Positions 42,244 to 63,900 of a stretch of 64,000 nucleotides of DNA are shown one piece after another (within the stretch, counting starts at the first letter, position 1; each line of letters opens with the position of its first letter). Under the pieces are notes generated by a model that was not told the origin of the DNA, made no database searches, and saw only the letters and a list, made by a program, of their open reading frames with translations. The stretch spans positions 42,679-106,678 of the forward strand of contig JAQMWT010000054.1 in the NCBI GenBank assembly GCA_029834535.1, written 5' to 3'. This DNA is from Chrysophaeum taylorii. Its lineage: Eukaryota > Sar > Pelagophyceae > Pelagomonadales > Pelagomonadaceae. The translations under genes were made by a program, and so were the position numbers.

Positions 42244-42367
42244 ACGATCGTGGCGCAATGGACAGCGTGTTGGACTTCGAAACCCTCCTAGCTTGAGGCA
42301 GGTGTTATCTATGTGATACCCTAGTGAAGAGATCCAGAGGTTGTGGGTTCAAGTCCCACCGATCGTG
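42244..42367 (+). tRNA. tRNA-Arg (anticodon TCG) with a 51-nt intron
   Basis: The sequence folds into a complete cloverleaf. Acceptor stem ACGATCG pairs with CGATCGT (7 bp). The D arm is GCGC-AATGGACA-GCGT. The anticodon arm is TTGGA-CTTCGA/A-TCCAG with anticodon TCG at positions 34-36. The intron (42281-42331) lies in the canonical place, one base after the anticodon (between positions 37 and 38). The variable loop is AGGTT and the T arm GTGGG-TTCAAGT-CCCAC is perfect. Discriminator base G. An A-box TGGCGCAATGG and a B-box GGTTCAAGTCC are present, and a T6 pol III terminator lies about 32 bp downstream (CTTTTTTG). The tRNA reads CGA codons, and by wobble possibly CGG. Splicing would use the tRNA splicing endonuclease and ligase pathway. 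Confidence 0.93.
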
Positions 42368-42626: not shown

Positions 42627-43027
42627 TGCCCTAACCCTGCGATCGCTAACCGTTGGTTGCGATGGAGGACGGCGCCTAACACGCTTGCTCCCTGCGGCGG
42701 CCCCGGCCGTCCCGGAGTGAGACGGTGCCTGCTCGCCTCCCGGGCTGGCCGGTTAGCACCCGGAAAGTCCGCGCTGGGATGGGGTTCGCTCGGTTGGGCA
42801 GAACGCGACGGACAGGTCGATTGTTCGTGGACCAACACGTTTGCGGCCTGCGACGCTTTTGCACGACTTCGCACAAGACCGCGCGCAGTGGCGGTCCGTC
42901 ATCAACGAGTCCTCGTCCCTCGCCTCAGCCCCAACTGCGTGATTTTCCTCTGTGATTCCGGATCGGCTCCTGCCTGTCCGGCCTGGCTCCCATGCTCGGG
43001 AGAGGTCTGAAGTTAGTTAGTTAGTTA
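42627..43027. mobile_element. SINE-like element S1 (401 bp)
   Basis: Bounded by GTACGGC on each side (42620-42626 and 43028-43034). It starts TGCCCTAACC and ends in a GTTA tetramer tail (AAGTTAGTTAGTTAGTTA). Its 5' start, its middle (CTCGCCTCCCGGGC(T/G)GGCCGGTT) and its last 70 bases (CCTGGCTCCCATGCTCGGG to the GTTA tail) match element S2 at 48937. No ORF is convincing. Tetramer tail and short target duplication fit a SINE or non-autonomous non-LTR retroelement; strand is unknown. Confidence 0.65.
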
Positions 43028-43245: not shown

Positions 43246-43849
43246 TGTCCGGGGCAAAGCAGATTGCTACGCACAAAGCAGATTGCTACGCACACGCCAT
43301 GCCCGACGCGGCCTCTACCCGCTAGCCCGTATTTGCGCGCCCTCGTGGCAGTCCCCGAGAGCCTCCTCCTCGACGAACTATCGACATGTTGCAGAGCATT
43401 TAGCAAGCAGTGGTAAGTCACATGGGAAACCATCCCGCCTCATCGTGAGCGTCTGGAAAGGCTAATTCGGGGAATGAAGGTTATGTTCCCTATATCCTCA
43501 GAACACGACAGGCGGCATCTAGAACTACACGAGAAAGGTTAAGTGTATAGTGCTACATACCTCGGGACGCGCTAGACCATGATGATGAGCGTAGGCACAA
43601 ATCAGAGGACTATTTGATTGTGTAGAAAGGAAGAAGAAGGGTAAGGAAGAGATCACGTTCTCAACGGACGGATAAGGGTAAGAGGCAGCAGATTTCTCTG
43701 CACCCCCTCGAGATGTCTTAAGCGCAAGGTGCGACTGTAGAGCATCTCTTGAGAAAGATGATGATGAAGAAAAAAGGAAGGAATGCAGTCTTGATGGTCA
43801 CAGAGGTCACATACGAAGCATCAAGAGTATAGAAGGGTCTTAGGACTTG

Positions 43850-44481
43850 GACTTGGACTTGGTGGAGCTGAGAGTCGATTTGACCCTTTTGAACAGAACA
43901 TTAAGAAACACAGATACAACAGACAGTGTGTTAGGATTATTAATCATCGTCAGCTTCTGCTGTAAGGTGGTGAACACCAATAGCTGAACGATGTGGTGCC
44001 AAGAGAAGGGTGAGTGCAAGTAGAGCATTCAGTATGGATGGCGATAGAGAATCTAGTTGAAAGGTGTCCAGTTGGTTTTCCAAAAAAGGTTGGACTTGGC
44101 GAACGAAGAACGAAGATAGAAGAGTCTTCAGATTCACATGAGAGCGGACGGAATGCTCTGAAGCATGAGAGCAACTTGTCACGTAGATGAAGGAGGTGAT
44201 CGTCCGGGGAGGAGTAGTTGGTAGCATGTTGATCATGAGCGGTGAGTATTAAGCGAGACAACAGCTCTGTGATCTTGTACAGTGTATAAGTAACACGTGG
44301 GTGTTGGCTGTAGGAGGGAAGAGCCGGTTCTCCAGGGAGGTGTTTCCTGGAGTTGGTCGACTTGTTGGCACAAGAAGTCGGAATCAACAAGCGAAGCAGA
44401 AGGCGTAGGTAACGGTGGCGAAGATATCTCCAGAGTAGCGTCTAGCGTGGAGTGTGAGTAGTTTAACGACGTTTCGGTCAA
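43850..44481 (-). pseudogene. copy A ORF Y
   Basis: Frame opens at 44481 after a TAA, without an ATG. It begins LTETSLNY, the last of four such motifs in this copy. In its first third it reads LEISSPPLPTPSAS and then a helix DFLCQQVDQLQ; a frameshift near 44340 moves the rest (YKITELLSRLILTAHDQHA and DNPNTLSVVSVFLNVLF) to another frame. Copy B has the more complete version at 58441-59169. Helical, Leu-rich, no known domain. Confidence 0.55.
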
Positions 44482-45622
44482 CGTTAAAAAAAAGGGGTGC
44501 AGGAAGCCTTAATGTTCTGCCTGAACATAAGTGTGGCCGAACATTACATCCCGGAGTGATAGCGGTTCTGTATCATCAGAGGATGATGCGTAGTTGTTAA
44601 GATGTTGTACACGCGATCAGATAACAGTATGAATCACATGGTGGTATTTGGTGGCTTGAACATAGCCTGAGTTTTACGAGCTTGTGTTTGCTCGAGCGTT
44701 ACAAGAAAGTTAAGATGCTCCAGGTGCATCTGAGTAATAAGCCGAAGATCCAGTGCCAATGGTAGTTGAGTAGTGGAGTCTGTGGCTGCATCGGTTACTG
44801 ATAAGACTAAATGAGCAAGTGACGAATGTTGCGTTAGATTTCTGGTCAAGAGAATATGTAGCTCCTTTGGCAAATGATACGTGCGTATGATGGTTGCGCG
44901 TATATGACCAGCTGAGCACCCGTTACAGGAGGGTTGGAAGGAAGTAGCATTACGTGCACATACGTTAGGTTGTATGGGCGCCTGATCGGTGTTGTGACAA
45001 GCACAACAAATGTTAGTGGTGATAGTTGAGATGGGAATATGACCATTCTTCTTGTGGTCATCTGTGTTAAGGTGACTCAGCACTTCAGTGGGGAGTTCAC
45101 TAGGTGCTTGTGACTTCGAATTATATGTGGTAGAAGCAAGAAATGTAGGATGACAGGATGAAACGTTCACGTTTGGGGCCTCTGTAGCAGCCAATAGAAG
45201 TAATAGCAGGAGCAGCTTCCCAAAATGTAGTAATGGGTAGGCGCATGGATATGAACGTCGTAAGTTCCACAAACAGTAAAGAGTCAGCAGATTCATATAT
45301 CGAGTTGAGTGCCGTAGAGATTTCCGCTCGCATAACAGAAGAGAGAAAGGGCGTGGCAGGAGTATGGAAGCTCTCAGAACGAGAGATCCTCGTTCAATCA
45401 GGGCAAAATCCATGTTGAGGCCATCGCTGGTGTCGGTGAGACAGTAGCAGCCTGGGAGGTAGTAGGAGTGACAGTGGTTATGGGTTGTCGCTTTTGAAAC
45501 AACTTGGGAGAGATGCCACGGCCACGGGAGTGTCAAGAAGACATGAACAACACTCGCCCGTGTACAAAAAATTGTGGCAAGAGAAGGTAAGGCCAGGGAT
45601 AGTTTAACGACGTTGCGGTCAC
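44482..45622 (-). pseudogene. copy A ORF X (C-x2-C domain)
   Basis: Begins at VTATSLNYPWPYL (about 45622), in frame with the end of RNase H but after its stop. The best conserved part lies near 45060-44700: HIPISTITTNICCACHNTDQ (C-x2-C), SFQPSC, then AGHIRATIIRTYHLPKELHILL. The same layout occurs in copy B and in the third pair at 59639. Frames switch between about 45400 and 45250. No known family; see findings. Confidence 0.5.
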
Positions 45623-45760
45623 TAGAGTTAGGTATCTTCAATCCTGTAAAGGATTGTCGTGAGAGGCATGATGCATACCGAGTAGAGAACGAAAAGTGGA
45701 ACTCAGAACTCAGCAGCTTGCAAGTGGCCATCCGGGAACGATGGACTCGTATTTTAAGCG

Positions 45761-46198
45761 CTATGTGTCACGGAATCTTAAACCATCTGTCGACAGTGCC
45801 TTGGATCGAGAGGACCCATCTGGGTTATTAGAGGTGTGAACAGCGGCAGCATTGTCAGACAAAAGAGGTAGGCTTCTGATGAAGCGCATATCTTCAGCAA
45901 TTGGGTTGTCATTGTCATCGAAGTCAACAGGGTCAGCGGTGTTCTCACCATTAGCATTGTTGACGTAGAAGGTGGGGTTGACGACAAAGGAGAGTTCCAA
46001 CAGCAGCTTGCGTAGCCAAACAGCTTCATCAGCACAAATACTGAGGGCAATCAACTCAGCTTCGTGAGTTGAGCAGGAGACAATCGGTTGAAGTTTGCTT
46101 TTCCAACCAATAAGGCAGTTGAAAAGATAGAAGACAAACCCGGTGGTAGATTTCCTATCTTCCTGTGCTAAGGAAGGGGCATTGTCAGCGTCAACCAT
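45761..46198 (-). pseudogene. copy A RNase H part
   Basis: 145 codons starting MVDADNAPSLAQEDRKSTTGFVFY. The TTGFVF.L..CLIGWKSKLQPIVSCSTHEAELIAL stretch is the typical copia RNase H (S.ST.EAEYIAL). It belongs to the same protein as the RT at 46204-48234; a 1-nt deletion at the QFDP codon run makes a premature TAG between them. The region after 45761 is further rearranged compared with copy B. Confidence 0.85.
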
Positions 46199-46203
46199 GG
46201 CAA

Positions 46204-48234
46204 CTAAGGGTCAAACTGTCCAGTAGATACATCCTGCGGTTGGTAGTCGACCACAGTGGATAGATCAATTCGATTAGCGGAGACAGTGCGAAGGTGAGCT
46301 TCAATGGCATTACCTTTAGGGTGAAACCAGAGGCGAAGTGAGCGGTTTTCCGGCTTCTTGAGGTAGCGAAGCAAATGCTCTAGCATTTGGACGTGAACAT
46401 ACGTGGGTGCATGCATACCACGCGAACATCTGCCCAAGGCTTGCGAGAAGTCAGGTCTGCAGGCAACTTGCATGAACACCAGCTTGCCAAGGAGGGTGGC
46501 AAAGTGCGAGTTGATGTACAACTCTGTTTCAGTGCTGGGAGTGCCATCTTTATACTTGAAGGACGATGACATAGGATATTTAAGCGGGGTCAGTTGCTGC
46601 AAGACTGGGTGATCAGCGAAGAGTTCATCCAGCTTGGCTTGCACATCCAGAGAAATGGAGCCGTCAGATGTGCGACACACACGCATGCCTAGGAGGGTAT
46701 GGACATGTTCAAACTGCTCTACAGCATACCGTTTGTGGAGGGCATCCTGTAATTCAGTACGAAGAGGGTCGTCATTGGACACGATAACAATGTCGTCTAC
46801 AGACAGACTGCATACGACGAACTTAGCATGTGCGGATACTCGAGCATATAGGCAAGAGTCCGAATGCAGGCGTTTGTAACCAAGGCTACGGAAGAAGCCG
46901 TCTATCTCTTTGTTCCAAAGGGATGGTGATTGTCTAAGTCCATAAAGTGACTTCAGCAGTTTCGGTAGACGTCGGCCCTTGTACTTAGCGTCATCGGGGT
47001 CGATAAGCTTGATGCCGTCTGGTAACTGAACATAGACATTGGCATCGATGTCAGACTGAACGAAGGCGTTCGGGACGTCTGCATGGTAGACAGGCAATTG
47101 CTTGTATGCTGCAATAGCTAGTAGTACCCGGATTGCGGTCATAGTGGCCATGGGGCTGAAGGTGCCAAAGAAATCGGCGCCAAGAGATGCTAGGAAGCCA
47201 CGTAGTACGAGGCGAGCCTTGTGCTTAACGTATTTGCCTGCAGAGTCTGTTTTAATCTTCAGCACCATCATGCTGTAAATAGGACGAGAGACACCGTCGG
47301 GTAAGGAAAGTTTGAAGCAGCCAAAGCGGATAATGTCGTGGAGTTCCTTGGCGATGGCCTTGAGGTAGGCGTGCCTGTTTTCAGGCGACAAACCGTGGAG
47401 GCACTTAAGTTTATATTCGTCAATGGAAACGTCCGCTTCTTGGACCTTATATTCGTCAGGACCAACAGTGGCTGGTGAATTATAGTTTAGCGACGTTGCG
47501 GTCGAGGCAGTGTGCGCAACTTCGGGATAAGCGGAAACAGCGTCGGTAGGAGTAGTAGGGGCAGATTCCAGTTGGATATGGATAGTAGGGTCGGTACGTA
47601 AGACCTGGGTGATAAACTCTGTAGAGACCATAAGGTATTCCTCCAAGTCAGCCAGAGATGCAGAGGTAGCGCCAAAATCGGATGAGTTGTGATCAATAAA
47701 GCTGGTCGGCGCCGGGCACGTAAGTGCATATTGTAAGGAAGAAGTGCCGAAGGCAGCAGCGTGTTCAGTGAACGCAGATAAAAGGGGCTGAGGAATAGGG
47801 CACGCAGGTGAACCATCAGCAGTCAAAAAGGTTGCAGCTGGGATGCTGGATGCGCACTTGGCGTGGGCGAAGTAACCATCGACGTGCGGGTAGCGGGCAA
47901 GTAAGTCAGTACGCAACGGGAAAAGAAGACGAGCTAACAACGCATGTTCCCCCGCTGAGCAGATAGCAGACCAGAGGATACCACCATTGAGATGAAGGGC
48001 GGAGAGGGCGGGAGACTTGAACGTACGAAAGTGGCGGCGAAGATCCCAGCGGAAATCGGCGAGTTTGCCACCAGCGGCCTTGTAAGCACCAATAGTAGAC
48101 GCTTGCAGCCGGGCTTGGATATTTTTCATGGAAGTTGCCTTGCGGGTGTTAGGTTGTTTGGAACCTGGGACAAGAATGAGGTCATCTTGTGCAAAAAGTT
48201 CTTTGTAAGAAGGAAGCAAGGGCGGCGGTGACAT
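46204..48234 (-). pseudogene. copy A IN end/reverse transcriptase
   Basis: 676-codon open stretch. It includes the C-terminal linker of the integrase polyprotein, then TASTATSLNYNSPATVG (second SLNY site, near 47495), then the copia RT: FGCFKLSLPDGVSRP, KYVKHKARLVLRGF, FSPMATMTAIRVLLAIAA, VYHADVPNAFVQSDID, YVQLPDGIKL, LKSLYGLRQSPSLWN and the catalytic LSVDDIVIVSND. SVDD replaces the usual YVDD. The connection region FMQVACRPDFSQALGRCSR follows. The frame is intact over 2 kb, so decay of this copy is recent. RT makes DNA from the element's RNA inside virus-like particles. Confidence 0.92.
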
Positions 48235-48299
48235 AGAGCCAGAATCGTCGGCGAGAGCGTCAGAAGAGGGAGAAGAAGCAGGAGCAGGGGACGAAGAAG

Positions 48300-50270
48300 G
48301 AGCTGAAGGAGGCGGAGAGTGCCCCCTCTGAGGATGAGGAGTCCGTGTCCCCCTCTGAATGACATGGTCTGGATAGCGGCGTGGGGTGTGAGCGAGAAAG
48401 GCGCGGGAGGAGCGTGAGGCGGAGGAGCAAGTTCAGGATCAGGAGTAGGATGCTGCAGCATGTAGAGGAATTGCAGCTTGGACGAAACACGAATTTGTCC
48501 GTTTTCAGGGTTGAGGACGACGTCAGCGAGATGGTCGACGCGTGGGGAGAAGAGCGGGTTTTGCGCGTTGGCGCAACAGAGATATGGATATTTGCGGCGG
48601 CACGGTTCCCACTTGTGGTGTTCATGGGGCTCCAATGGAAGGTAGCATTCAGCGCCAAAAATCATGAGCATATCATGTTGGGGACTGTTGAGTTGGTTAT
48701 AGAGTAGCTGTTGCGGACTCAGGATAGCATGATGAATGCGCTCGAGCGTGGCGTTCGGGGGAAGGTTGTAGCTTTGAACGGTGTGTATCACCGCCCATGG
48801 GAACATGATGGCTGGTTCCACGATCTTGGCGCCACGATAGTGAGCATTAAGGAGAGAACGAAGGCGAGTTGAGGAGGCGGAGGCGATGAAACCGATGGCA
48901 GACTCAACTTCAAAGTTAAAGTGGTGCATGTACGGCTGCCTCATGAATCCTGAGCCTTGCGAGGGCATCCGCCCTCCCGGCGTAGGTTGGCACCTATTCG
49001 CCTCCCGGGCGGGCCGGTTGGCAGCCGGAACGTTCGCAGTGGGACGGGGTATGGCCGGGGGGCGAAGACGGAAGGTTATCGGCGAGTTGGTTGTCAGTCA
49101 CATCGCGGTCTCCTCGTCGCATTGCGACAAGCTTGATGGTCACTCTCCGCCGACCGACCTTTCGGCGCTCCTCGTCTACAGGCCCGTGATTCCGGACTGG
49201 CTCCTGTCGGTCCGGCCTGGCTCCCATGCTCGGGAGAGGTCTGAAGTTAGTTAAGTTAGTACGGCGGGAAGGCAATGAGCTGAATGCCCTTATCGACGCG
49301 GTACGGGGAGGTAATGTGCTGGCTAAAGTAAGGCTTGAATGCATCGGAGTAGAGGGTGCGCATGTGCACATTGAGTTGTGTACGACAGAAGTCATACACA
49401 AAATCCAGAGCTTGAGTGAACTCCGTGGCGGTGGTGGTGCGTGTGAAGTACACCAAGAGCAATTTCGAAATGAGTTCCTTGAAGACGATGATATGTGTGA
49501 AGCCTCCCCATTCGGATGGGATGGTCACATAGCCGCCGTCGCACGCCCAGACTTCGCCGGCTTTGTGAGTTTGCTCAAAAGAAGGTTTGGTCGCATTGAA
49601 ATGCTTGTGCGGGTGGCGCTTGTTGTGTGCGATGCAGTCGGCGCATAAGTCGCGATATGGTATGTCAGAAGCAGAGAATCCAGGGCGAGCAAGTACGTTG
49701 GGGGCCTTGGCAGCGACGTTGTCGGGGCAGTGATGCACCCGGTGAGAGCGATTAGCTCGTTCTTTGGCATTGAGATATTCGGTGGATCCGTGTGCGAGGG
49801 ACTTACGAGGAATTGGATGAGCGGGAATGTGCCGTTTGCGCCGAACATCGAACTTGAGTTCGGTGTCTAAGGCAGTGGAAGGCGGTGCGTCGTCATCCTG
49901 GTGCACAGCAGGGTCACTTGGAGGTGCATCCTCATTATCACGAGTAGCGAGAGTATCTTCGTAGGACGACGATATATAGTTTAACGACATTTCGGTCAAG
50001 CAGTTGCTGGAAATATACATCTTAAAAGATTGTGCCAAAGACAAGGTATCTGTGCTGCACGCGGTGGAGGCTTGGTCAACGGTCATTAAATTGGATACAT
50101 AGGACTTCTTCGTCACGGCAGCAGTATGTTGGAAGGTAGGGTCCAACATAAGGGATTTAATATCGGCGACGATGAGCGAAAGGTGCTTGTACAGAGTGCT
50201 GTACGTACCGGCAGGCAGAGCATTGCTGAGCATGTCACAGCAAAGATCGTGGCGTAGAGACAATAGGGAA
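48300..50270 (-). pseudogene. copy A gag-like end and integrase, interrupted
   Basis: Starts in the shared sequence SLLSLRHDLCCDMLSNALP. NCLTEMSLNY at about 49990 marks the first SLNY site. The integrase follows with a zinc finger-like H-x-H...C-x2-C (HHCPDNVAAK through LCADCIAHN), the first Asp in WACDGGYV, second in RTLYSDAFKPYF and Glu in FEVESAIGF. Element S2 splits it between the two catalytic residues, at codons for FPPY/MHHF. A 1-nt deletion near 48370 shifts the frame before the RT part. Integrase joins cDNA to host DNA. Confidence 0.88.
48937..49258. mobile_element. SINE-like element S2 (322 bp) inside the copy A integrase
   Basis: Inserted with a 7-bp target duplication GTACGGC (48930-48936 and 49259-49265). 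The uninterrupted target is seen in copy B near 52811-52819 (complement GCCGTAC) and, one base changed, in the orphan fragment near 24550. It begins TGCCTCATGAATCC and ends in AAGTTAGTTAAGTTA. Ends and middle match S1 at 42627. Confidence 0.85.
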
Positions 50271-50462
50271 GATTTAAATATCAATGTAAAAGTTGTTGTT
50301 GAGTCTGATGATACGCTTGTGCGCATGTTACGCCACCGTTTTCCTGCAGTATTGTTATTTGGATCTTTGCCCGCCTTTATCAACCATCTTCACCAAATCT
50401 CACCAGAGGAAAGGCGCAAATTTTATTATTATGTGATATTATCGAGATAACTCCTCCATGCA

Positions 50463-52084
50463 CTAACAGGAATCTACGAAAGCAGCATAAGACCGAACAC
50501 TTACACAGCCTGCTCGACGACTCCCAATTCGACAGCATGCTGTCTGTCATCAAATTTCTCCAACCCTTGGTACTACTGGCTGAGATGACACCACCCCACA
50601 AGTACTGTCATCAAGACCATATAACTGTGGCCAATCTCATCCATTCCACACTCGATTGATGTGTTGATGTTGTTGACAGGTTCCCGACCTACGTATGTGG
50701 CGACTACCAATCTAGGGAAAGATGGATCTGCATCGCACGCAGGTATTCTACTGGACCAATCAACATACTCTCATGGCCTACCCACCACCCACGCCCCTTC
50801 TTTAAGATCGTGGATGACATACAAGCCATTCCTAAACGACTTTGGCTATCCAAAGATATCGCCGAAGACTGGATCCGGGTGTTCCCCGATCCACCAGATG
50901 TCCCCGTTCCTAAAACTTTCGCACCTTACTCTCGCACAGGATATATTCAGCTTACCATGACTGACCTTGAAATACTCAATTTACAATTTCTCCGCCTTCA
51001 CTCACAATAGGCTCACGAGCAACGCACGCACTCTGTCCAATCCGAGTGTACTTATCATCAGCTGTGTCTCAAACGCTCCTCCATGGGACCACTTCCACAA
51101 GCAACTAATCCATTGCGTGTCAAGGCCTTCGCCATATTATATAACTTGTTTGCCATATTGCACACTAACTCACCCACTCCTGTGTCCTATTACATAACCG
51201 TTTTCGAAACTGACCAACCATCACATAGGTTTCTACTTACAACATCATCAACATCACACAACACCTACTTCTTAACCGGTGGCCACCACACTGACGGCGA
51301 CCTCACCATAGAAAACGCCGCCACCAAATATCATGCTTCCATTGACGCGTTTGGAAGCACGTATACGTTTACTGCCTCCAACGTCCCCCGCGACAGAGAC
51401 AGATCTGTATATTTGGAGCCGTTTATGGGTTTCTTGTGGATCATCCTAGCCCTTCCTCAAGTTGGCTCCGCTGCCGCCTATGGCACTGCCATACAAAAGC
51501 TCCTGTCCAGATGCTCTCTTGTGATGCCTGGCTGCCTTACCTACAAGGCCACAGACAATTCTTTCGACTACGAGGATTGTCATTTTGCTCTGGAATATCA
51601 CCACTTGTCCCGTAGTCGCCATATAGGGTATCTTCGTGGAAGCGACCGCAAACTCGGCTCTAAAATCCACTCCATGTTTGCTCCATTGCCCGCCGTCCGA
51701 GGGTATGCAAACATTATCTTACTCGACCCTCGCAACGGGAAATTACGCTATCCCACTCGACCGGAGTTGATTCGAGCTAACAACCACACCAAACAACAGG
51801 CGTCTTTCCTATTGTCTCTTCGCCACGACCTTTGCTGTGACATGCTCAGCAATGCTCTGCCTGCCGGTACGTACAGCACACTGTACAAGCACCTCTCTCT
51901 CCACGTTGCTGATATTAAGTCCCTCATGTTGGACCCTACCTTCCAATATGCTGCTGCCGTGATGAAGAAATCCTATGTATCCACCTTCATGACCTTTGAT
52001 CCGGCCTCCACCACGTGCAGCACAGATACCTTGTCTTTGGCACAAGCCTTCATGACTTCTATCTCCAGCAACTGCTTGACCTAA
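50463..52084 (+). pseudogene. copy B gag-like region
   Basis: One frame reads throughout, broken by TGA at 50657 and TAG at 51008. Segments: LHSLLDDSQFDSMLSVIKFLQPL, RFPTYVCGDYQSRERW, IPKRLWLSKDIAEDWIRVFP, PLRVKAFAILYNLFAIL, DRSVYLEPFMGFLWIILAL and SFLLSLRHDLCCDML. No CCHC zinc knuckle and no D-S/T-G protease motif was found, so gag is assigned by position only. It ends in CLT-stop directly before MSLNY; copy A has GAA (Glu) where this copy has TAA, so the stop is a point mutation. Confidence 0.55.
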
Positions 52085-54338
52085 ATGTCGTTGAACTATA
52101 TGTCTTCGTCATCCTACGAAGATACTCTAGCTACTTGTGATGAAGAGGACACACCTCCAAGTGACCCTGCTGCTCACCAGGATGACGACGCACCGCCTCC
52201 TCCTGCCTTGGACACCGAACTCAAGTTCGATGTTCGGCGCCAACGTCATATCCCCGCTCATCCCATTCCTCGCAAATCCCTCGCACACGGATCTGCTGAA
52301 TATCTCAACGCCAAAGAACGTGCCAGTCGCTTCCACCGGGTGCACCACTGCCCCGACAACGTTGCAGCCAAGGCCCCCAACGTACTGGCTCGCCCTGGCT
52401 TCTCTGCCTCCGATCTACCGTATCGCGACTTATGCACCGACTGCATCGCGCACAACACGCGCCACCCGCACAGGCACTTCAATCCGACCAAGCCCTCTTT
52501 TGAGCAAACTCACAAAGCCGGCGAAGTCTGGGCGTGCGACGGCGGCTATGTGACAATTCCGTCAGAATGGGGAGGCTTCACCCATATCATTGTGTTCAAG
52601 GAACTTATCTCGAAGTTTCTCTTGGTGTACTTTACACGCACCACCAACGCCACGGAGTTCACTCAAGCTCTGGACTTTGTGTATGACTTTTGTCGTACAC
52701 AACTCAACGTGCACCTGCGCACCCTCTACTCATACGCTTTCAAGCCCTATTTTAGCCAGCACACTACCGCCCCGTACCGCGTCGATAAGGGCATTCAGCT
52801 CATCGCTTTCCCGCCGTACATGCACCACTTTAACTTTGAAGTTGAGTCAGCCATCGGCTTCATCGCCTCCGCCTCCTCAACTCGCCTTCGCTCGCTCCTT
52901 AATGCTCATTATCGTGGCTCCAAGATCGTGGAACCAGCCATCATGTTTCCCTGGGCGGTGATACACACCATCCAAAGCTACAACCTTCTCCCGAACGCCA
53001 TGCTCGAGCGCATTCACCATGCTATCTTGAGTCCGCAGCAGCTACTCTACAATCAACTGAACACTCCCCAGCATGACATGCTCAAGATCTTCGGCGCTGA
53101 ATGCTACCTTCTACTGGAACCCCACGAGCACCACAAGTGGGAACCGTGCCGCCGCAAATACTTATATCTATGTTGCGCCAACGCGCAAAACCCGCTCGTC
53201 TCCCCACGTGTGGCCCATATTGCCGACGTCGTCCTCGACCCTGAAAACGGACAAATCCGTGTTTCGTCCAAGCTGCGATTCCTATACATGCTCCAGCATC
53301 CTACTCCTGATCCTGAACTTGCTCCTCCGCCTCACGCTCCTCCCGCGCTTTCCTCGCTCACACCCCACGCTGCTATCCAATACCATTTCATTCGGAGGGG
53401 GACACGGACACCTCATCCTCCGAGGGGGCACTCTCCACCTCCCTCAGCTCCTTCACCGTCCCCTGCTCCTGCTTCTCCTCCCCCTTCCGACGCCCCCGTC
53501 GACGATTCTGGCTCTATGCCACCGCCGCCCTTGCTTCCTTCTTACAAAGACCTTTTCGCACAAGATGACCTCATCCTTGTCCCAGGTTCCAAACAACCTA
53601 ACAACCGCAAGGCAACCTCCATGAAAAATATCCAAGCCCGGCTTCAAGCGTCTACTATTGGTGCTTACAACGCCGCTGGTGGCAAACTCGCCGAGTTCCG
53701 CTGGGATCTTCGCCACCACTCTCTTACGTTCAAGTCTCCCGCCCTCTCCGCCCTTCATATCAATGGTGGTATCCTCTGGTCTGCTATCTGCTCAGAGGGG
53801 GAACATGCGTTGTTAGCTCGTCTTCTCCTCCCGTTGCGCACTGACTTACTTGCCCGTTACCCTCACGTCGATGGTTACTTCGCCCACGCTAAGTGCGCAT
53901 CCAGCATTCCAGCCGCGACCTTTCTAACTGCGGATAGTTCACCTGCGCGCTCCATTTCTAAGCCTCTTTTAGCTGCGTTCACTGAGCACGCTGCAGCCTT
54001 TGGCCTCTTTTCATTGCAGTATGCACTTACGTATCTGGCGCCGACCAGCTTTATCGATCACAACTCCTCCGTGTTTGGCGCTCATCCTGCATCTCTGTCT
54101 GACTTGGAGGAATACCTTCGGGTCCCTACAGAGTATATCGCCCAGGTCTTATATGCCGACCCTACTATCCATATTCAACTGGAATCTGGTTCTTATACCC
54201 CTCCTACTGACGCTGTTTCCGCTTATCCCCGAAGTCGCGCACACTGCCTCGAGCGCAGCGTCGTTAAACTATAGTTCACCAGCCACTGTTGGTCCTGACG
54301 AATATAAGGTCCAAGAAGCGGACGTTTCCATCGACGAA
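52085..54338 (+). pseudogene. copy B integrase and linker
   Basis: Begins MSLNYMSSSSYED and is open for 730 codons. Zinc finger-like HHC...LCTDCIAHN, catalytic Asp in WACDGGYV, Glu in FEVESAIGF. The middle catalytic Asp of copy A (LYSDAF) is Tyr here (LYSYAF), which should kill activity. A Pro-rich linker leads to LLPSYKDLFAQDDLILVPGS. A frameshift near 54200 moves the second SLNY motif (SSAASLNYSSPATVG, 54258) to another frame. The Helitron follows at codon GAA. Confidence 0.88.
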
Positions 54339-55361
54339 TCCTAACTACTAATCGACAGATGTTTGTTTGTTTGTTTGTCTGTCTGTCCCTCGATTTAGGG
54401 TAAGGATCAGGTAGGCGCGAGAGTAAGGATCAGGTAGGCGCGAGAGCCAGACAGTGATCCTCCAAGCCGTCGACGGCGACCTCGCAGACTATTTCCACGA
54501 CCCGCGGCGGCTCTTTCAGCGCGCCATTCTCACGCCCCGTCGAAACGATGTTGTCGATGCTGACAACGCGCGCATGACCACGGCCTTTTTTTCCCGGAGA
54601 CGAGGCGTCGGAGTTCTTTTCGGCTGACTAGGCTGGGTCGGAAGACGACGCCTCGCTCTTTACAGTATAGTTTTCAACTCCCTGACAACCAACGGCATGC
54701 TGACTTTGATCGCGAGGTTAAAGTCTTCGCAACCTCGAACCCGTCGCACGGCCTCTGCAACGGCACCGGATACATCATCGATCGCGTCGTGTCACCGAGG
54801 CTCCTCGAACCTGTATCCCTTAAGCCCCGCCTACGCCAAACGATCAACAAGAGCCAGGGCCAGACGCCCCGCGAGGTCGGCGTCCTCTTGCCCAAGCCCG
54901 TCTTCTGCCACGTCCAGCTCTACGTGGCTCTCTGTCGATCGGTATCCCCGAGGATATACTCATCTGGGTCGACGACTCCACCCTACCCCACACGTGCTGC
55001 GCAATACCGATAAGCCCCCTCCCGGCGTCTACACGCGCACTATAGGTGAACTTACTGGGACCACGTGAACTTACTGGGGTTTGAGATTGGGACTAGGTGG
55101 ACTGAGTGACCAGGTGAAACTGGGACCAGGTGAACATACTGGGGTTTTCAGAGTAAAGGGTTTTAGAGTAAACTCAAAGGTTGGCGGCGCGTGCGGACCA
55201 AAGTAGCTTAGATTGGCGGAGGCGAGAGCGACGAGCTCAAAGGAGTTGGTTAGAGCTAGGTGAACTTACTGACCAGGTGAACTTATATGAAACTTACTGG
55301 GACCAGGTGAACTTACTGGGGTTGGAGATTGGGACTAGGTGAACTTACTGGCCTGCACTTG
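54339..55361 (+). mobile_element. Helitron copy H2, inserted in copy B
   Basis: 1023 bp from TCCTAACTACTAATCGACAG to CCTGCACTTG, inserted exactly between host GACGAA and TATAAAC. The empty site GACGAATATAAAC is intact in copy A (complement near 47410-47425). No target duplication, host A on the left and T on the right, as for Helitrons. It carries a PIF1/Helitron helicase C-terminal remnant (GLCNGTGYIID, TINKSQGQTPREVGVLLPKP, FCHVQLYVALCRS). Subterminal GGTGAACTTACTGGG repeats lie at 55040-55350. It lacks Rep and most of the helicase, so it is non-autonomous. Confidence 0.9.
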
Positions 55362-57168
55362 TATAAACTTAAGTGCCTCCACGGTATGTCGCCTGAAGAC
55401 AGGCACGCCAACCTCAAGGCCATCGCCAAGGAACTCCACGACATTGTCCGCTTCGGCTGCTTCAAGCTTTCACTACCCGACGGTGTCTCTCGTCCTATTG
55501 ACAGCAGGATGGTGCTGAAGATTAAAACGGACCCTGCAGGCAAATACGTTAAGCACAAGGCTCGCCTCGTGCTGCGTGGCTTCCTAGCCTCCCTTGGCGC
55601 CGATTTCTTTGGCACCTTCAGCCCAATGGCCACAATGACCGCAATCCGGGTACTACTGGCTATTGCAGCATACAAGCAATTGCCTGTCTACCACGCCGAC
55701 GTCCCGAACGCCTTCGTTCAGTTTGACATTGATGCCAACGTCTATGTTCAGTTACCAGACGGCATCAAGCTTATCGACCCCGATGACGCTAAGTGCAAGG
55801 GCCGACGCCTACCGAAACTGCTGAAGTCACTTTATGGACTTCGTCAATCGCCATCTCTTTGGAACAAAGAGATAGACGGCTTATTCCGTAGCCTTGGCTA
55901 CAAGCGCCTGCATTCGGACTCTTGCCTATATGCTCGAGTATCCGCACATGCTAAGTTCGTCGTATGCAGTCTGTCTGTAGACGACATTGTTATTGTGTCC
56001 AATGATGACACTCTTCGTACTGAGTTGCAGGATGCCCTTCACAAACGGTATGCTGTAGAGCAGTTTGAACCTGTCCATACCCTCCTAGGTATGCGTGTGT
56101 GTCGCCCATCTGACGGATCAATTTCTCTGGATGTGCAAGCCAAGCTTGATGAACTCTTCCCTGATCACCCTGTCTTACAGCAACTAACTCCGCTTAAATA
56201 CCCTGTGTCCTCGTCCGTCGAGTATAAAGATGGCACTCCCAGCTCTGAAACAGAGTTGTACATCAACTCGCACTTTGCCACCCTCCTTGGCGAACTGGTG
56301 TTCATGCAAGTGGCCTGCAGACCTGACTTCTCGCCAGCCTTGGGCAGAAGTTCTCGTGGTATGCATGCACCCACGTATGTATGTTCACGTCCAAATGCTA
56401 GAACACCTGCTCCGCTACCTGAGGAAGCCGGAAAACCGCTCACTTCGCCTCTGGTTCCATCCTAAAGGTAATGCTATTGAAGCTCACCTTCGCACTGTTT
56501 CCGCTAATAGAATCGATCTCTCCACTGTGGTCGACTACCAACCGCAGGATGTATCCACTGGACAGTTTGATCCCTTAGTTGCCATGGTTGACGCTGACAA
56601 CGCCCCTTCCTTAGCACAGGAAGATAGGAAATCTATCACCGGGTTTGTCTTCTATCTTTTCAACTGCCTTATTGGTTGGGAAAGCAAGCTTCAACCGATT
56701 GTCTCCTGCTCAACTCACGAAGCTGAGTTGATTGCCCTCAGTATTTGTGCTGATGAAGCTGTTTGGCTACGCAAGCTCCTGTTGGAACTTTTCTTTGTCG
56801 TCAACCCCACCTTCTACGTCAACAATGTTAATGGTGAGAACACCGCTGATCCTGTTGACTTCGATGACAATGACAACCCAATTGCTGAAGATATGCGCTT
56901 CATCAGAAGCCTCCCTCTCTTGTCTGACAATGCTGCTGCTGTTCACACCTCTAATAACCCAGATGGATCCTCTCGCTCCAAGGCACGTCGACCAGATGGT
57001 TTAAGATCCGCGAGTACATCTCGCTACAGAAAATTCGAGTCCATCATGTTCCCGGCAAACTAAACGTGGCTGATGGTTTTACAAAGCCACTTGCTGCTGA
57101 GTTCTCCATTTCTCGTTCTCTACTCGTTATGCATCATGCCTCTGATGACAAGCCTCTACAGGATTGAA
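55362..57168 (+). pseudogene. copy B reverse transcriptase-RNase H
   Basis: Resumes with YKLKCLHGMSPEDRHANLKAI and contains the whole RT (FGCFKLSLPDGVSRPIDS, KARLVLRGF, YHADVPNAFVQFDID, LSVDDIVIVSND) and RNase H (TGFVFYLFNCLIGWESKLQ, CSTHEAELIAL). A 4-nt duplication (TATG) near 56375 and breaks near 56985 shift the frame. The end VHHVPGKLNVADGFTKPLAAE is the conserved copia C-terminus. Pol stop at about 57166 (LQD-stop). Confidence 0.92.
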
Positions 57169-58417
57169 GATGCCTAACCCCAGTGACCGCAACGTCGGCA
57201 AACTAGCCCTGGCCTTACCTTCTTTTGCCACGATTTTTTTTGTGCGTGTGAGTGCGTCGCCTATGTCCTTTTCTTGGCACTCCCGTGGCCGCGGCTTCTC
57301 CCCAGTCGTTCGAAGGACAGTCCCACGCTCGCTCTCCACGGCCGAACCTTCCGCCAGGTTGTCGCAAAAGCGACAAACCATGACTGCTGCTACCACACAG
57401 GCTGCTGCGGTTGCACCGACACCAGCCGTGCATGTCTCACCTCAGTCGCTGACATTCCAGGACGGCCTCAGTATTGACTATGCTGCTTACGAGCGAGGAG
57501 TCTCTCTCCTTGAGAACTTCCGTGTCCCTGTCACCCCATGTCTGTTTCTTTTATGCGATTGGAACTCACTCTGCCCTGTGAGTCTACTGACTTTTCATTG
57601 TTTGTGGACCTGACCACATTCATATCTAGGCGCCTACCCATTACTATACCTTGGGAAGCTGCGCCTGCTATTGCTTCTATTGGCTGCTATAGAGGCCCCA
57701 AACGCGAGCGTTTCATTTTGTCGTCTTTTTTTTTTTGTACGCAGTGCCTCAATGATCGTGGACAACCGACGTTCCTTGTCTCGACCACGTACAGTTCCAA
57801 GGCACAAACACCTCGTGCACTCCCCACTGAAGTGCAGAGTCACCTCAACACAGACGACCATAAGAAGAATGGTCACACCCCCATCTCTGCTATTAATATA
57901 GGAATTTGCTTTGCTTGTCACAATACTGATCAGGTGCCTTTGCAACCTACCGTATGTGCCCGCAATGATACTTCCTTCCAATTCCCTTGTGATGCGCGCT
58001 CAGCTGTTCGTATACGCGCTACCCTCATACGCATCTATCATTTGCCAAGGGAGTTATATACTCTTTTAACAAACATGCTAGCTCAACACCCATCATCACT
58101 TGTTAACATGATCTTATCCGTATCCGCCCTGGCCACAACAGATTCCACCATACATGCAATGGCCATTTGCACTGGATCTTCGGCTTATAACTATGCACCT
58201 TGAGCATCGTAGTTTACTTTTTTGTGACTCTTGTTCGAACACAGAGTCGCAAAGCTCAGGCTATGTGCAAGCCATCCATTCAGCATTTGATTACTACTGT
58301 TGCTCGATCGTGTGTACAACATCTTGACGACTACGCATCATCCTCTGATGATACAGAACCGCCATCACTCCGGGATGTAATGTTCGGCCCCACTTATACT
58401 CAGGCAGAACATTAAGA
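57169..58417 (+). pseudogene. copy B ORF X (C-x2-C domain)
   Basis: Follows the pol stop without a break in frame through a degenerate motif VTATSAN-stop (57187). Pieces: MTAATTQAAAVAPTPAVHVS, FQDGLSIDYAAYERGVSLLENF, LTTFISRRLPITIPWEAAPAIA, GICFACHNTDQVPLQP, SFQFPC, VRIRATLIRIYHLPRELYTLL and, in a last frame, HLDDYASSSDDTEPPSLRDVMF. Two or three frameshifts are needed. The C-x2-C...C plus RAxI segment is shared with copy A and the pair at 59639. Confidence 0.55.
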
Positions 58418-58440
58418 CTTCCTGCACTCTTTTTTTAACG

Positions 58441-59169
58441 TTGACCGAAGCGTCGTTAAACTACTTACACTCCACGCCAGACTCTACTCTGGAGATATCT
58501 TCGCCATCGTTACCTACGTCTTCTGCCTCGCTTGCTGATTTCGACGTCTTGTGTCAACAAGTCGACCAACTCCAGGAAACTCTTCGAATCTATATTACCA
58601 AGGCTGCCATTGCTTCAGTCACCTCCCTGGAGAACCGGTTCTTCCCTCCTACAGCCAACACCCACGTGTTACTTATAACACTGTACAAGATCACAGAGCT
58701 GTTGTCTCGCTTAACACTCACCGCTCATGACCAACATGCTGCCAACCACTCCTCCCCGGACGATCACCTCCTTCATCTACGTGACAAGTTGCTCTCATGC
58801 TTCAGAGCATTCCGTCCGCTCTCATGTGAATCTGAAGACTCTTCTATCTTCACGTTCGCCAAGTCCAACTTATTGGAAAACCAACTGGACACCTTTCAAC
58901 TAGATTCTCTTTCGCCATCCATACTGAATGCTCTACTTGCACTCACTTTTCATTTGGCACCACATCATTCACATCATTCAGCTATTGGTGTTCACCACCT
59001 TACAGCAGAAGCTGACGATGATTCCAACACTCTCGAACCGGTAACAATTAACGACATCTACCACCTCACCTCAGATAATCCTAACACACTGTCTGTTGTA
59101 TCTGTGTTTCTTAATGTTCTGTTCAAAAGGGTCAAATCGACTCTCAGCTCCACCAAGTCCAAGTCCTAA
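58441..59169 (+). pseudogene. copy B ORF Y
   Basis: 243 codons from TTG; no ATG precedes the motif LTEASLNYLHSTPDSTLEISS. Then a helical part: FDVLCQQVDQLQETLRIYITKAA, ITLYKITELLSRLTLTAHD, LLHLRDKLLSCFRAFRPLSCE, QLDSLSPSILNALLALTFHLAP. Ends in basic SLFKRVKSTLSSTKSKS-like residues. No domain known to me; helical content recalls capsid or coiled-coil proteins. The missing start codon fits synthesis as part of a polyprotein or by recoding. Confidence 0.55.
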
Positions 59170-59638
59170 GATTCTATACTCTTGATGCTTCGTATGTGAC
59201 CTCTGCGACCATCAAGACTGCATTCTCATTTTTTCTTTCTTTCTTTCATCATCCTCTTTCTCAAGCGATGTTCTATAGTCGCACCTTGCGCTTAAGACAT
59301 CTCGAGGGAGGGCAGAGAAACCTGCTGCCTCTTACCCTTATCCGTCCGTTGAGAGCGTGATCTCTTCCTTACCCTTCTTCTTCCTTTCTACACAGTCAAT
59401 TAGTCCTCTGATTTGTGCTTAAGCTCATCATCATGGTCTAGCGCGTCCCGAGGTATGTAGCACTATACACTATACCTTTCTCGTGTAGTTCTAGATGCCG
59501 CCTGTCGTGTTCTGAGGATACAGGGAACATACCTTTTCATTCCCCGAATTAAATACTTCCAGACGCACATGATGAGACGGGATGGTTTCCCAGGTGACTT
59601 ACCACTGCATGCTAAATGTTCTGCAGGATCTCCATAAA

Positions 59639-61464: not shown

Positions 61465-62279
61465 ATAATGCTTCTAACGACCAACCCGATGATCATGACT
61501 CTTCTTCTCCATAATTAAAAAAACTTGAAGACAATAGTGATGATGAGTTGGACCACACATCTGATGTTGTGGATGCTGTTTCTCTACGCAATGTAACAAC
61601 ACGTCCAACTTCATCCTCCTAGACTTAATTGTTATGTTACTTCCTCCTTTATATTATTGTTGTTTGTTTAATTTAGTCGCTGTTCTCATGTATCATACAC
61701 AAGTTCCGCACTCAAGAGCGTCTGGAATGCACAAAGCCTTCACGTAGAGGGGCAGAGCGCTACATGATGTGTACGACACTGGAACTCCTCACTCCTTTAC
61801 AACCTTCTCTACTATAGGTTTCTCTTCGCAATACGGCTTTCCTCTTTCATTCCTTACCCTTCCGCAATTATGATTTCCAGACAATGAATTATTCGATATG
61901 CAGTTCTCTTCCAACAAGGAGTAGGCCTCCAGGTGCGTACCGTCAGGTATGGGGTTTTCTGTTTAATTAACGGAGGCTTTATTCCTCATTGTCAGTGTAA
62001 ACGCTTCTATGGGACCTAATGTCCTTAAGGAGTTAGGGCCGAAATCCCTACCTTGTGTAGTAGCATGTGGCAAGCGGAATGGTCTGTACACGCCTAAGAC
62101 TGCACGCAGTCTCTACCATGTACCCGGAGAGGTTCAAATCTCTCCAGCGTGAGAACAGTGGTAGTCTGTCATCGAAACTGTCTCCTAAACGAGGACAGCC
62201 GGTGTGAATAACACAGCGTTTTCTTAAATCAAAGGTGGCAAAGTTAAGGGAACTAACCCTAGAATAGGGGGTGCTAACC
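61465..62279. other. non-coding stretch with tRNA-like segment
   Basis: No ORF. At 62065-62155 there are an A-box-like TGGCAAGCGGAATGG and a B-box-like GGTTCAAATC between GGAGAG and CTCTCC, with a hairpin AGACT-GCACGC-AGTCT between them. The anticodon loop would have six bases and the acceptor stem does not close, so it is a tRNA relic at best. Confidence 0.35.
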
Positions 62280-63900
62280 CTAATTCGGATTTTCTATCTC
62301 TAGTCTCTCCGGTATTTGGTGAGAAACGCGTTTTCGCGAGGCACACTCGTGATACTGGTAGAGGGGATGCTGGCTGCAAGCAAGTTCGTTTGAGTAAGTA
62401 GTTTTGAGGTGACCACAGCTTGTGAAAAAAAAGGTAATGGGGACGACGGGCGCGGTAGCTTCGCCATTGTCCTTGCCGAGACCGTTGTTAAGATCGAATG
62501 GTAAGAGGTTTTGTGGGTTACTCGATAATGTAGTATTGGTCGCTGCTTGATTGGAACTCCTTCGGCACATTGCTACAGTGACATGTGACGAGAGTTCCGT
62601 CGGTCGCTCAGGTGACAATTTTGCTATGGCGTCAGCAGTAAAATTGACGGATTCCGCGGCAGCAGTGGCTGGTGAAGAGCTGATGCCACTTATGTTAGAT
62701 GGGATGGGGTGGGTGCAGACACGGTGAGTTGGTCTCCCCATGGTTTAACGACGCTGCGGTCGAAAGCAGATCGTCAACATTCCGGCGATATCGGCATAGG
62801 AAAGTTGATCATTTAAGCGAACAAAGTGGCATTATCGTCTGGAGCTAGACGTACGAGCGATAATAGGCAGATTGCAACAACGTGCAAATACGCTTGTAAT
62901 CTTATTTTGCAGCTGAGAGGTAGTGGTAGTTTGATTGACGTGTCTGGAGGCTTACGGAATTGATCTTTGAGTGCATGCATAGTGGCGTGTGATCTAGCAT
63001 TTCATATCAGATCGAGAAGGTCTGTTGAAGGTGCGAGCATACACTGGGCGATCGTTAGATTGACCAGGACTGTGAGCTCTGGTGACATAGGAGTCACCGG
63101 ACCGGTAGTAGCTAAGATCATTGGGAGAAAAGGGCTGACTAGCGTCTTTTGAGTTACGTCGGCGTCGTGCGTTAAACGCGGGTTTCGACTGTTGTCCGTT
63201 GGCTGAGTTGGTAAGTGACGCAAGTACATGTGCTGTGTGCGCCATTGCAGTATCTGTAGAGTCCAGCAGTTGGGTTAGCAGTAATTTGGGCTTCTTATGT
63301 GTGGACAATCCTTATACGTAAGGGATCCAAGAGACTGGCGGTTCTAGGCGTCTTTTATCGTTTGTGGTATTGGACACTGAGTTATAGAGGTCCAGTGCAC
63401 ACTCAAGAATAGCGGAAGAGTCAGAAGGATGACATAGTCTGTTGGCTTCAGGTTGTGCTCTAGTGGAGGTGCGTGTTTCGTAGATGAGGCACCAGTCGAC
63501 CCATCCTCTATCGTAGCGATTGTTGCTGGTGTTGTCAGAGGATAGTTCATTTTAGCTGCTCCTGAGAAAGCTGGGCAAGGGCAGCTTCAGTAAAGTTTGC
63601 CGATTCGGCAGTATGGCATAAGGAAAGCCGGCCATTGGAATCAGTAGGAAGAATAGCGCTGGGTCCAGACTCAGTAAAACGTTCTGGCCCATAGTTTAAC
63701 GACATTTCGGTCGGAAACAGATGTGGGAAAGTTTTTCGTGAGATCAAGTTCAAAACGTGGTGATTGTCCCAATTGACGTTGAAACAGGAGATGCTTGAAA
63801 GAATGCACGACGGCGAACAGCAACGCCCTGGTGTACACAATGCGGCGGTTCTTGATTCAAATACGGAATAATTTCGGAGACGCTGCTTCGAAGAAGGCTG
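62280..63900 (-). pseudogene. degraded retroelement piece with two SLNY motifs
   Basis: Minus strand. FPTEMSLNYGPERF at 63697 and STAASLNHGETNSP at 62745 repeat the boundary motif with the same codons. Each is followed by a related sequence, AESANFTEAALAQLSQEQL and AESVNFTADAIAKLSPERP. The frames are short and broken (63840-63547, 63550-63344, 62741-62280). The related elements A, B and this one differ here, so it may be a gag-end or X-Y region of another family. The piece continues to the window edge. Confidence 0.5.

What the first reader, a model, noticed from the sequence alone, without database searches (positions are those of the whole stretch)
43395..63900. T-[E/A]-x-S-L-N-Y repeated at every domain boundary of a copia polyprotein
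Seen directly: LTEMSLNY (49990, minus), STATSLNY (47495), VTATSLNY (45610), LTETSLNY (44470), and in copy B TxMSLNY (52085), SAASLNY (54258), a worn copy (57187), LTEASLNY (58447), plus PTEMSLNY (63697) and STAASLNH (62745). They fall between gag-like and IN, IN and RT, RH and X, and X and Y. HIV-1 matrix/capsid cleavage is after SQNY, so SLNY looks like a repeated processing site for a retroelement protease. Repetition of one identical site at all boundaries of a copia element is, to my knowledge, not described.
Basis: partly seen in the sequence, partly recalled or inferred. Interest (0 to 1): 0.9.

Follow-up and report, generated by a model that had tools for sequence, protein, structure and literature searches.

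The report
Repeated 21-base motif in algal retrotransposons
The repeated "SLNY" is the in-frame translation of a 21-base signal that is conserved base by base between the parts of several jumping-gene families of one (probably algal) genome, so it may be a signal read in the RNA during translation rather than only a protein-cutting site.

Summary
The repeats are real: 10 window sites match GACCGNANNGTCGTTAAACTA within 3 mismatches, 0.02 expected. The genome holds 1767 matches within 2 mismatches, control 0.

The conserved thing is the base string. Between families with randomised fourfold sites (27-42% identical) the motif's synonymous bases stay fixed, while residue-changing bases 6, 8 and 9 vary. 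Behind RNase H the string follows the pol stop and itself ends in a stop codon (TxxSLN-stop), so no bond can be cut there. A Ty3/gypsy-like element carries it too. A sister copia family lacks it at IN|RT (10 of 10 loci) but keeps a variant behind pol in 18 of 20 copies, with bases 2 and 11 exchanged from A..T to T..A.

Yet all 8 in-protein site types found share one reading frame, and on average a predicted RNA hairpin starts directly behind them.

Best guess, confidence 0.35: an RNA signal read during translation (pause or release at linkers). Protease site, RNA-protein hairpin and VANC-like DNA motif remain possible. Nothing was tested at the bench.

The parts
44459..44479 (-). motif site S5 (X|Y), LTETSLNY, exact
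45600..45620 (-). motif site S4, behind the end of the RT-RH frame, before ORF2 (X); exact
   Evidence: same site in other copies
47483..47503 (-). motif site S3 (IN|RT), STATSLNY, Leu codon CTA (subfamily variant)
49977..49997 (-). motif site S2 (before IN), LTEMSLNY, exact
52078..52098 (+). motif site S2 of copy B, 2 mismatches, frame reads LT-stop-MSLNY
54251..54271 (+). motif site S3 of copy B, 1 mismatch
57185..57205 (+). motif site S4 of copy B, 2 mismatches (the worn copy)
58443..58463 (+). motif site S5 of copy B, LTEASLNY, exact
62741..62761 (-). motif site S1 type in a third, partial element, STAASLNH, 1 mismatch
63692..63712 (-). motif site S0 type (gag region) in the third element, PTEMSLNY, exact
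46204..48432 (-). open frame with IN tail, S3 and RT (RVT_2) of copy A
   Evidence: PF07727 E 5e-41
45761..46210 (-). RNase H part of copy A (by likeness to relatives; no Pfam hit)
49256..50389 (-). open frame with S2 and start of integrase, copy A (broken)
52085..54274 (+). integrase frame of copy B (SH3-like domain, below the Pfam cut-off)
55311..56465 (+). RT frame of copy B
58381..59169 (+). end of X, S5 and Y of ORF2, copy B; no Pfam hit
43390..43699 (-). LTR (about 310-330 bp) of copy A
59305..59627 (+). LTR of copy B

Best explanation
The feature is a 21-base cis element, G[A/T]CCG-N-A-N-N-G[T/A]C-N-TTAAACTA, of LTR retrotransposons of this genome; SLNY is its translation. SHOWN by sequence: base-level conservation between families, one reading phase in the in-protein types found, a site behind pol that ends in a stop codon and is shared with a sister family that lacks the others, presence in a Ty3-like element, and on average a predicted hairpin right behind the in-protein copies. 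INFERRED: the site behind pol is the old one and the linker copies are gains; the element acts on the translating ribosome. When UUA-AAC is decoded with the hairpin ahead, the ribosome pauses, and in part of the passages releases or slips, so that protein parts end at linkers; where no domain follows in frame, the next codon is a real stop (UAG/UAA) instead of UAU/UAC. Whether the outcome is a pause, a release of the StopGo type or a slip is not determined.
For: (1) Base-level constraint: families with 27-42% identity at fourfold sites (7 comparisons with the C9 copy) share bases 4, 7, 10, 16 and 19 (third codon positions) and base 1, fixed G although the amino acid it ends varies. In two samples not chosen by the motif these six bases are also nearly invariant (23 rows at S3, 20 rows at the copia-B site). 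TCG and TTA are each 14% of their amino acid's codons in the element. Spellings of SLNY other than TCGTTAAACTAY number 583, against 827 in the reversed control. (2) Phase: 8 of 8 in-protein types are in the TxxSLNY frame, although frame DRxVVKL is open too and would need no change of the stop. (3) At S4 the string is in the pol frame with a stop 10-12 codons before it in 45 of 52 unique S4 sites read. (4) N-UUA-AAC is a known slippery type in the right phase; GUUAAAC is listed for equine arteritis virus (PMC3835772 table). (5) 45-base windows at the motif end fold better than shuffles in 17 in-protein sites (mean z -1.21 +/- 0.29 at offset 0, -1.28 +/- 0.24 at -10; +0.16 at +10, -0.10 at -20); 9 S4 sites give -0.02.
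Against: The frame entered by a -1 slip has no early stops: 1 to 49 codons in the 19 sites, control median 15. The 17 sites are not independent (several share flanks); S3 shows little or no hairpin, 2 of 17 sites have z above 0, and weaker dips elsewhere (-1.02 +/- 0.45 at +70, -0.76 +/- 0.41 at -80) show the profile is noisy. One copia subfamily carries TTA to CTA at S3 (10 of 23 sampled rows), a change a base-level model should resist. Most loci of other families were found with patterns that fix these bases, so variants in them could be missed. The stop in front of S4 means most ribosomes would not reach it. There are no expression data.
Confidence: 0.35

Rival explanations
1. Protease site: the element's aspartic protease cuts SLN/Y or SLNY/x in every linker; the last product ends in SLN by itself at a pol terminus.
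For: In frame in 8 of 8 in-protein types; in linkers; a DSCA aspartic-protease-like motif lies between S1 and S2 (recognised by eye, no Pfam hit); the Ty1 PR/IN site has P1 Asn; lineage changes at bases 13 and 14 are synonymous and the A..T/T..A exchange keeps Ser/Thr.
Against: Does not explain fixed third codon positions and base 1; S4 has no peptide bond to cut; the string is shared by copia and a Ty3-like element, which would be expected to have different proteases; the copia sister family does without it at IN|RT; the three Ty1 sites quoted in PMC6952103 differ from each other.
Confidence: 0.2
2. RNA hairpin recognised by a protein (packaging, dimerisation or export): stem G[A/U]C/G[U/A]C with loop CGNANN presents single-stranded UUAAACUA; several copies raise affinity.
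For: Bases 2 and 11 change together: of 1392 genome sites of form GNCCGNANNGNCNTTAAACTA, 1209 are A..T, 159 T..A and 24 anything else; on 23 class representatives 95.7% of pair cells are standard and the covariation score is 0.358 against 0.152 +/- 0.038 shuffled; one strand in each element read; second hairpin behind in-protein sites.
Against: The co-change may be one event (the T..A sites fetched look like copia-B by their flanks), and Ser/Thr exchange predicts it too; two of four pairs never vary; the stem is only 3-4 pairs and the motif region itself does not fold better than shuffles (z -0.09); no reason for one reading phase.
Confidence: 0.2
3. DNA-binding motif for an element- or host-encoded protein, like the VANC anti-silencing motif of Arabidopsis VANDAL elements, placed in linkers because folded domains cannot take it.
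For: Several copies per element in one orientation, family-specific variants, presence in unrelated elements; VANC motifs are likewise arrayed in one orientation (PMC5735166 passages); ORF2 (X-Y) is an accessory protein for which no relative was found.
Against: VANC motifs lie mainly in non-coding DNA; one reading phase and the local RNA hairpin are not explained.
Confidence: 0.15
4. Target site of a 21-22 base small RNA, kept by a balance between element and host.
For: Length, and the tolerance of bases 6, 8 and 9 with a constant 3' half.
Against: No small RNA was looked for; elements gain nothing obvious from keeping it; phase not explained; copia-B changes base 11 within the constant half.
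Confidence: 0.05

Closest known systems
Retroviral and Ty1/copia protease processing sites (HIV-1 SQNY, recalled; Ty1 TARAH*NVSTS, VPTIN*NVHTS, IHLIA*AVKAV, PMC6952103 passages)
   Same: Short peptide in interdomain linkers; Asn before the possible cut
   Different: Here one nearly identical peptide in each linker, fixed codons, shared with a Ty3-like element, and one site that is a stop codon
-1 frameshift sites NUUAAAC of nidoviruses (PMC3835772 passages and table)
   Same: Same heptamer type in the same phase, with predicted RNA structure shortly behind many in-protein copies
   Different: No conserved -1 frame product; many copies per gene; a conserved upstream half
StopGo/2A recoding (PMC12846837, passages)
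   Same: Would separate proteins of one frame without a protease
   Different: No NPGP at the motif; conservation at base level, whereas 2A acts through the nascent peptide
VANC target motifs of VANDAL transposons (PMC5735166, passages)
   Same: Multi-copy, one-orientation motif spreading within transposon families
   Different: 21 bases, in coding linkers, in LTR retrotransposons, one reading phase

Membership tests
Ty1/copia retrotransposon (the carrier) | RVT_2 reverse transcriptase | tested here: met
   PF07727 E 5e-41
Ty1/copia retrotransposon (the carrier) | integrase before RT, LTRs at both ends | tested here: met
   order read; LTRs of about 310-330 bp; in the sister family the SH3-like domain passes and rve stays below the Pfam cut-off
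Ty3/gypsy-like element (second carrier) | Ty3-type RT in the long frame that follows the motif-bearing frame | tested here: met
   RT matches the Ty3-G Gag-Pol chain 7q5b, E 2.5e-12; the 763 aa frame of L015 ends ...DDPPFIF at the locus edge and the L092 frame begins PPFIF; LTRs not looked for
Aspartic-protease processing site | in-frame peptide in a linker | tested here: met
   (weak model, IN|RT only)
Aspartic-protease processing site | peptide, not codons, conserved | tested here: not met
   the CTA subfamily at S3 is an exception
Aspartic-protease processing site | peptide bond present at every copy | tested here: not met
   S4 ends in UAR
Aspartic-protease processing site | cleavage shown | not testable with these tools
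   needs particles or purified protease
-1 programmed frameshift site | slippery heptamer in zero frame | tested here: met
   G UUA AAC; heptamer known from PMC3835772
-1 programmed frameshift site | RNA structure a few bases downstream | tested here: inconclusive
   present on average in 17 in-protein sites, absent at 9 S4 sites, weak or absent at S3
-1 programmed frameshift site | conserved -1 frame product or stop | tested here: not met
StopGo/2A | NPGP at the site | tested here: not met
   within 50 codons in the motif frame NPGP occurs at 1 of 224 sites (repeats counted), behind the stop of a decayed copy (L053)
VANC-type DNA motif | sequence-specific DNA binding by an element protein | not testable with these tools
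   no binding assay
Structured RNA family in Rfam | match to a curated family | tested here: not met
   at gathering scores only a tRNA at window 42244-42367 in the 6 sources searched

The most novel reading that the evidence does not exclude
A previously undescribed translational signal, coded at base and peptide level at once (TxxSLN followed by UAY or UAR), marks domain ends in retrotransposon polyproteins; it arose from the natural end of pol and was copied in phase into linkers with the stop codon turned into Tyr, in elements of two superfamilies.
Probability: 0.25. Interest if true: 0.85.

Novelty: new variant of a known kind. Interest (0 to 1): 0.6.

Why it matters
If it acts in translation, it would be a protease-independent or protease-assisting way to end protein parts, present in more than a thousand natural copies with variants that can be tested one by one. 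If it is a DNA or RNA recognition motif, retrotransposons of two superfamilies in one host share a 21-base signal, which points to a common host or element factor. Either way, a peptide pattern in a polyprotein proved to be carried by base-level conservation, a warning for reading repeated peptide motifs as protease sites. I saw no print report of it, but the searches aimed at it were few and in an open-licence library (pelagophyte, copia, retrotransposon, 7 papers listed; copia polyprotein protease cleavage sites, 1 paper; conserved nucleotide motif in copia coding regions, 0 papers).

Tried and rejected
Rejected or weakened: chance. Recent copying or homogenisation between sites: site-specific variants persist (AAAAG at S1 and AAATG at S2 of copia-1, CAAY with a purine end at S4) in families with saturated synonymous sites, and copia-B keeps its own form. 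Primer-binding site: the bases after the LTR resemble the complement of initiator tRNA-Met (recalled), not the motif. Frameshift into an early stop. Separate starts in each domain: no Met codon in frame behind S2 of L034 up to the frame's end, and none for 74 codons behind S3 of window copy A. Rfam family. An early idea that S4 is read only as DRNVVKL (noted) was corrected: S4 lies in the pol frame and ends in a stop.

Dropped before counts: sites with a one-base longer spacer (6 genome sites, plus L060). L060 and L067-L070 lie in decayed chimeric elements, L066 has a stop just in front, L071 was not read; none is in the count of 8 in-protein types. L150 and L163 lack the copia-B site and were left out of the S4 base frequencies. 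The S3 sample of 23 is 20 of the 150 best RT matches plus window A, window B and C9. Of 55 unique UAR-ending sites three are in-protein sites with a stop (L037, L044, L091); of the 52 at S4, 45 have a stop 10-12 codons in front, 7 do not (L007, L042, L043, L055, L175, L178, L182). In one search one comparison (L058) gave no alignment.

Searches without result: the ORF2 protein and the gag-protease protein found no relative at E 0.001 among the candidates scored (7997 and 5459).
Full report
WHAT WAS CLAIMED.

CHECK. All ten sites are there. As DNA they are one 21-base string, GACCGNANNGTCGTTAAACTA, with 0-2 mismatches; 10 matches within 3 mismatches against 0.02 expected. Genome-wide, TCGTTAAACTAY occurs 556+573 times against 1+5 for the reversed pattern, and the 21-mer within two mismatches 879+888 times against 0+0.

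ANATOMY. A copy on contig C9 (loci L034, L035) shows five sites on one strand: S1 between a gag-like part and a stretch with a DSCA aspartic-protease-like motif (by eye), S2 before integrase, S3 between integrase and RT, S4 behind RNase H, S5 between X and Y of a second frame. A further site S0 lies in the gag part of related families, and one type could not be assigned (L100, L109, L117). With two sites in a Ty3-like element this makes eight in-protein types. The carriers are Ty1/copia: RVT_2, LTRs of about 310-330 bases. For X-Y and gag-protease no relative was found in the protein collection. The best-scoring relative of the IN-RT frame is from the pelagophyte Aureoumbra lagunensis (39% identity over 95%); by eye it has no SLNY at the IN|RT border.

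THE BASES ARE CONSERVED, NOT ONLY THE PEPTIDE. Families differ so much that fourfold sites are 27-42% identical in seven comparisons with the C9 copy, and identical residues share a codon in 35-49% (closer pairs L010/L012, L011/L069 and L015/L024 are 92, 65 and 90% at fourfold sites; L058 gave no alignment). Yet the motif keeps ACC, G-A, --G, TCG, TTA, AAC and a G in front, whatever residue that G ends. TCG is 14% of Ser and TTA 14% of Leu codons in the element. The bases that do vary (6, 8, 9) change residues. A caution: most loci of the other families were found with patterns that fix these bases. Three results do not suffer from that. The pattern for all TCN-YTN-AAY-TAY spellings has 1712 hits, control 833; without the exact spelling 583 against 827, so other spellings show no excess. 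An S3 sample chosen by RT likeness (20 copies plus 3) is invariant at bases 1, 4, 7, 10 and 19 and has one change in 23 at base 16. The copia-B site sample is invariant at bases 1, 4, 7, 10 and 16 and 0.05 variable at 19. Against the base-level reading: in the S3 sample 10 of 23 rows have CTA instead of TTA, one ends in TAA and one has two changes in the core, and the mean variation of the motif (0.029) is not far below that of the flanks (0.047). At six fetched sites base 13 is A (L167-L171, L176), synonymous where coding; L176 also has a Ser-changing base.

S4 ENDS IN A STOP. At S4 the string lies in the pol frame and ends in UAG or UAA: QD-stop-RCLTLVTATSLN-stop in copia-1, ET-stop-PLTLVTAMSLN-stop and DT-stop-SLALTVVSLN-stop in two other families. 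Of 52 unique S4 sites read, 45 have a stop 10-12 codons in front of the final stop and 7 do not. 186 genome sites have the exact string with the UAR ending, control 0.

A SISTER FAMILY. Of 12 loci fetched upstream of RT matches, chosen mainly for a different profile range, one copia-1 copy (L142) has the motif; ten copies of a sister family (copia-B) and one other copia (L140) lack it within 6 mismatches. The ten copia-B copies can be read across the border (...VASYAITHLTTTHDPSTVGPDEYKIQ). Five of the eleven hold a 12-base string within 2 mismatches of GTCGTTAAACTA elsewhere (L135, L137, L139, L140, L144), which I take for chance. In one copia-B copy read over 10.9 kb in pieces, the single string within 5 mismatches lies behind the pol stop, in front of an ORF2 relative. 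18 of 20 further copies have it there, with 0-3 mismatches to a pattern made for it: GTCCG-AATGAC-TTAAACTAACCCT, read DG-stop-SLPFIMSEMTLN-stop. Variation there is 0.026 in the motif against 0.111 in the flanks (two copies without the site left out). So S4 is probably the old site and the in-protein copies are later gains of the copia-1 lineage; root and direction were not tested with a tree.

A SECOND SUPERFAMILY. Loci L015, L017 and L024 carry two copies 87 bases apart, both read TxxSLNY; in L015 within a 763-residue frame. The neighbouring stretch L092 continues that frame for 1349 residues with a Ty3-like RT (7q5b, E 2.5e-12) and a C5-DNA-methyltransferase-like part below cut-off.

RNA STRUCTURE. 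In copia-B bases 2 and 11 are T and A instead of A and T. Of 1392 sites GNCCGNANNGNCNTTAAACTA, 1209 are A..T, 159 T..A, 24 other. On 23 class representatives 95.7% of the cells of a 4-pair stem are standard pairs. This may be one event, and Ser/Thr exchange would give the same. The motif alone does not fold better than shuffles (z -0.09). Behind in-protein sites it is different: 45-base windows starting at the motif end or 10 bases before give mean z -1.21 +/- 0.29 and -1.28 +/- 0.24 (17 sites), neighbours +0.16 and -0.10, S4 sites -0.02 (9 sites). A first run with 22 sites of all kinds gave -1.06 +/- 0.23 against 0.01 +/- 0.16 for 60 random windows. The sites are partly related, S3 shows little or none, and weaker dips appear at +70 and -80.

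READING PHASE. The string is open in two frames (TxxSLNY with UAY, and DRxVVKL). 8 of 8 in-protein types use the first, which needs UAY where S4 has UAR. With 5 to 8 independent gains the chance of all falling in that frame is about 3 to 0.4% if both frames were equally good; that equality and the number of gains are my assumptions.

MECHANISM. Base-level conservation plus fixed phase plus structure directly behind points to the translating ribosome; N-UUA-AAC is a known slippery type (PMC3835772, passages). But the -1 frame has no early stops, so a plain frameshift-to-stop is not supported; pause or release is left. I put 0.35 on a translation signal, 0.2 on a protease site, 0.2 on an RNA-protein hairpin, 0.15 on a DNA motif of VANC kind (PMC5735166, passages) and 0.05 on a small-RNA target.

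PAPERS. Passages only were seen of PMC6952103, PMC5735166, PMC3835772 and PMC12846837; PMC5890265 was seen as a search listing with the start of its abstract.

Noticed in passing
L092 1-4051 (minus), L015: Ty3/gypsy-like element whose long frame holds a C5-cytosine-methyltransferase-like part (PF00145 E 2.7e-4, below cut-off; TIGR00675 E 7.5e-4, below cut-off) in front of RT; compare retrotransposons with methyltransferases in dinoflagellates and charophytes (PMC5890265, listing only).
   Followed up: partly
window 42244-42367 (+): Rfam finds a 124-base tRNA match (53 bits, perhaps with an intron) where ARAGORN reported no gene in the window.
   Followed up: no
window 49064-49262 and 42952-43024; L035 5161-5358; L146 about 1786-1947: A short repeat of about 70-200 bases recurs at about 94-98% identity in several places, also between S4 and ORF2 of one copia-B copy; perhaps a young mobile repeat.
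   Followed up: no
L034 about 1720-1740: Bases behind the LTR (GGTTATGGGCCCAG) look like the complement of the anticodon arm of initiator tRNA-Met, as in Drosophila copia (recalled, not tested).
   Followed up: no
L060, L067-L070: A motif-bearing segment, probably of the ORF2 region, sits inside the RNase H part of a decayed copia family in several copies: a recombinant that spread.
   Followed up: partly
L146 2122-4137; window 59576-60643: ORF2 relative of copia-B (672 aa) with a coiled-coil-like C-terminal part and only weak, sub-cut-off family matches.
   Followed up: no
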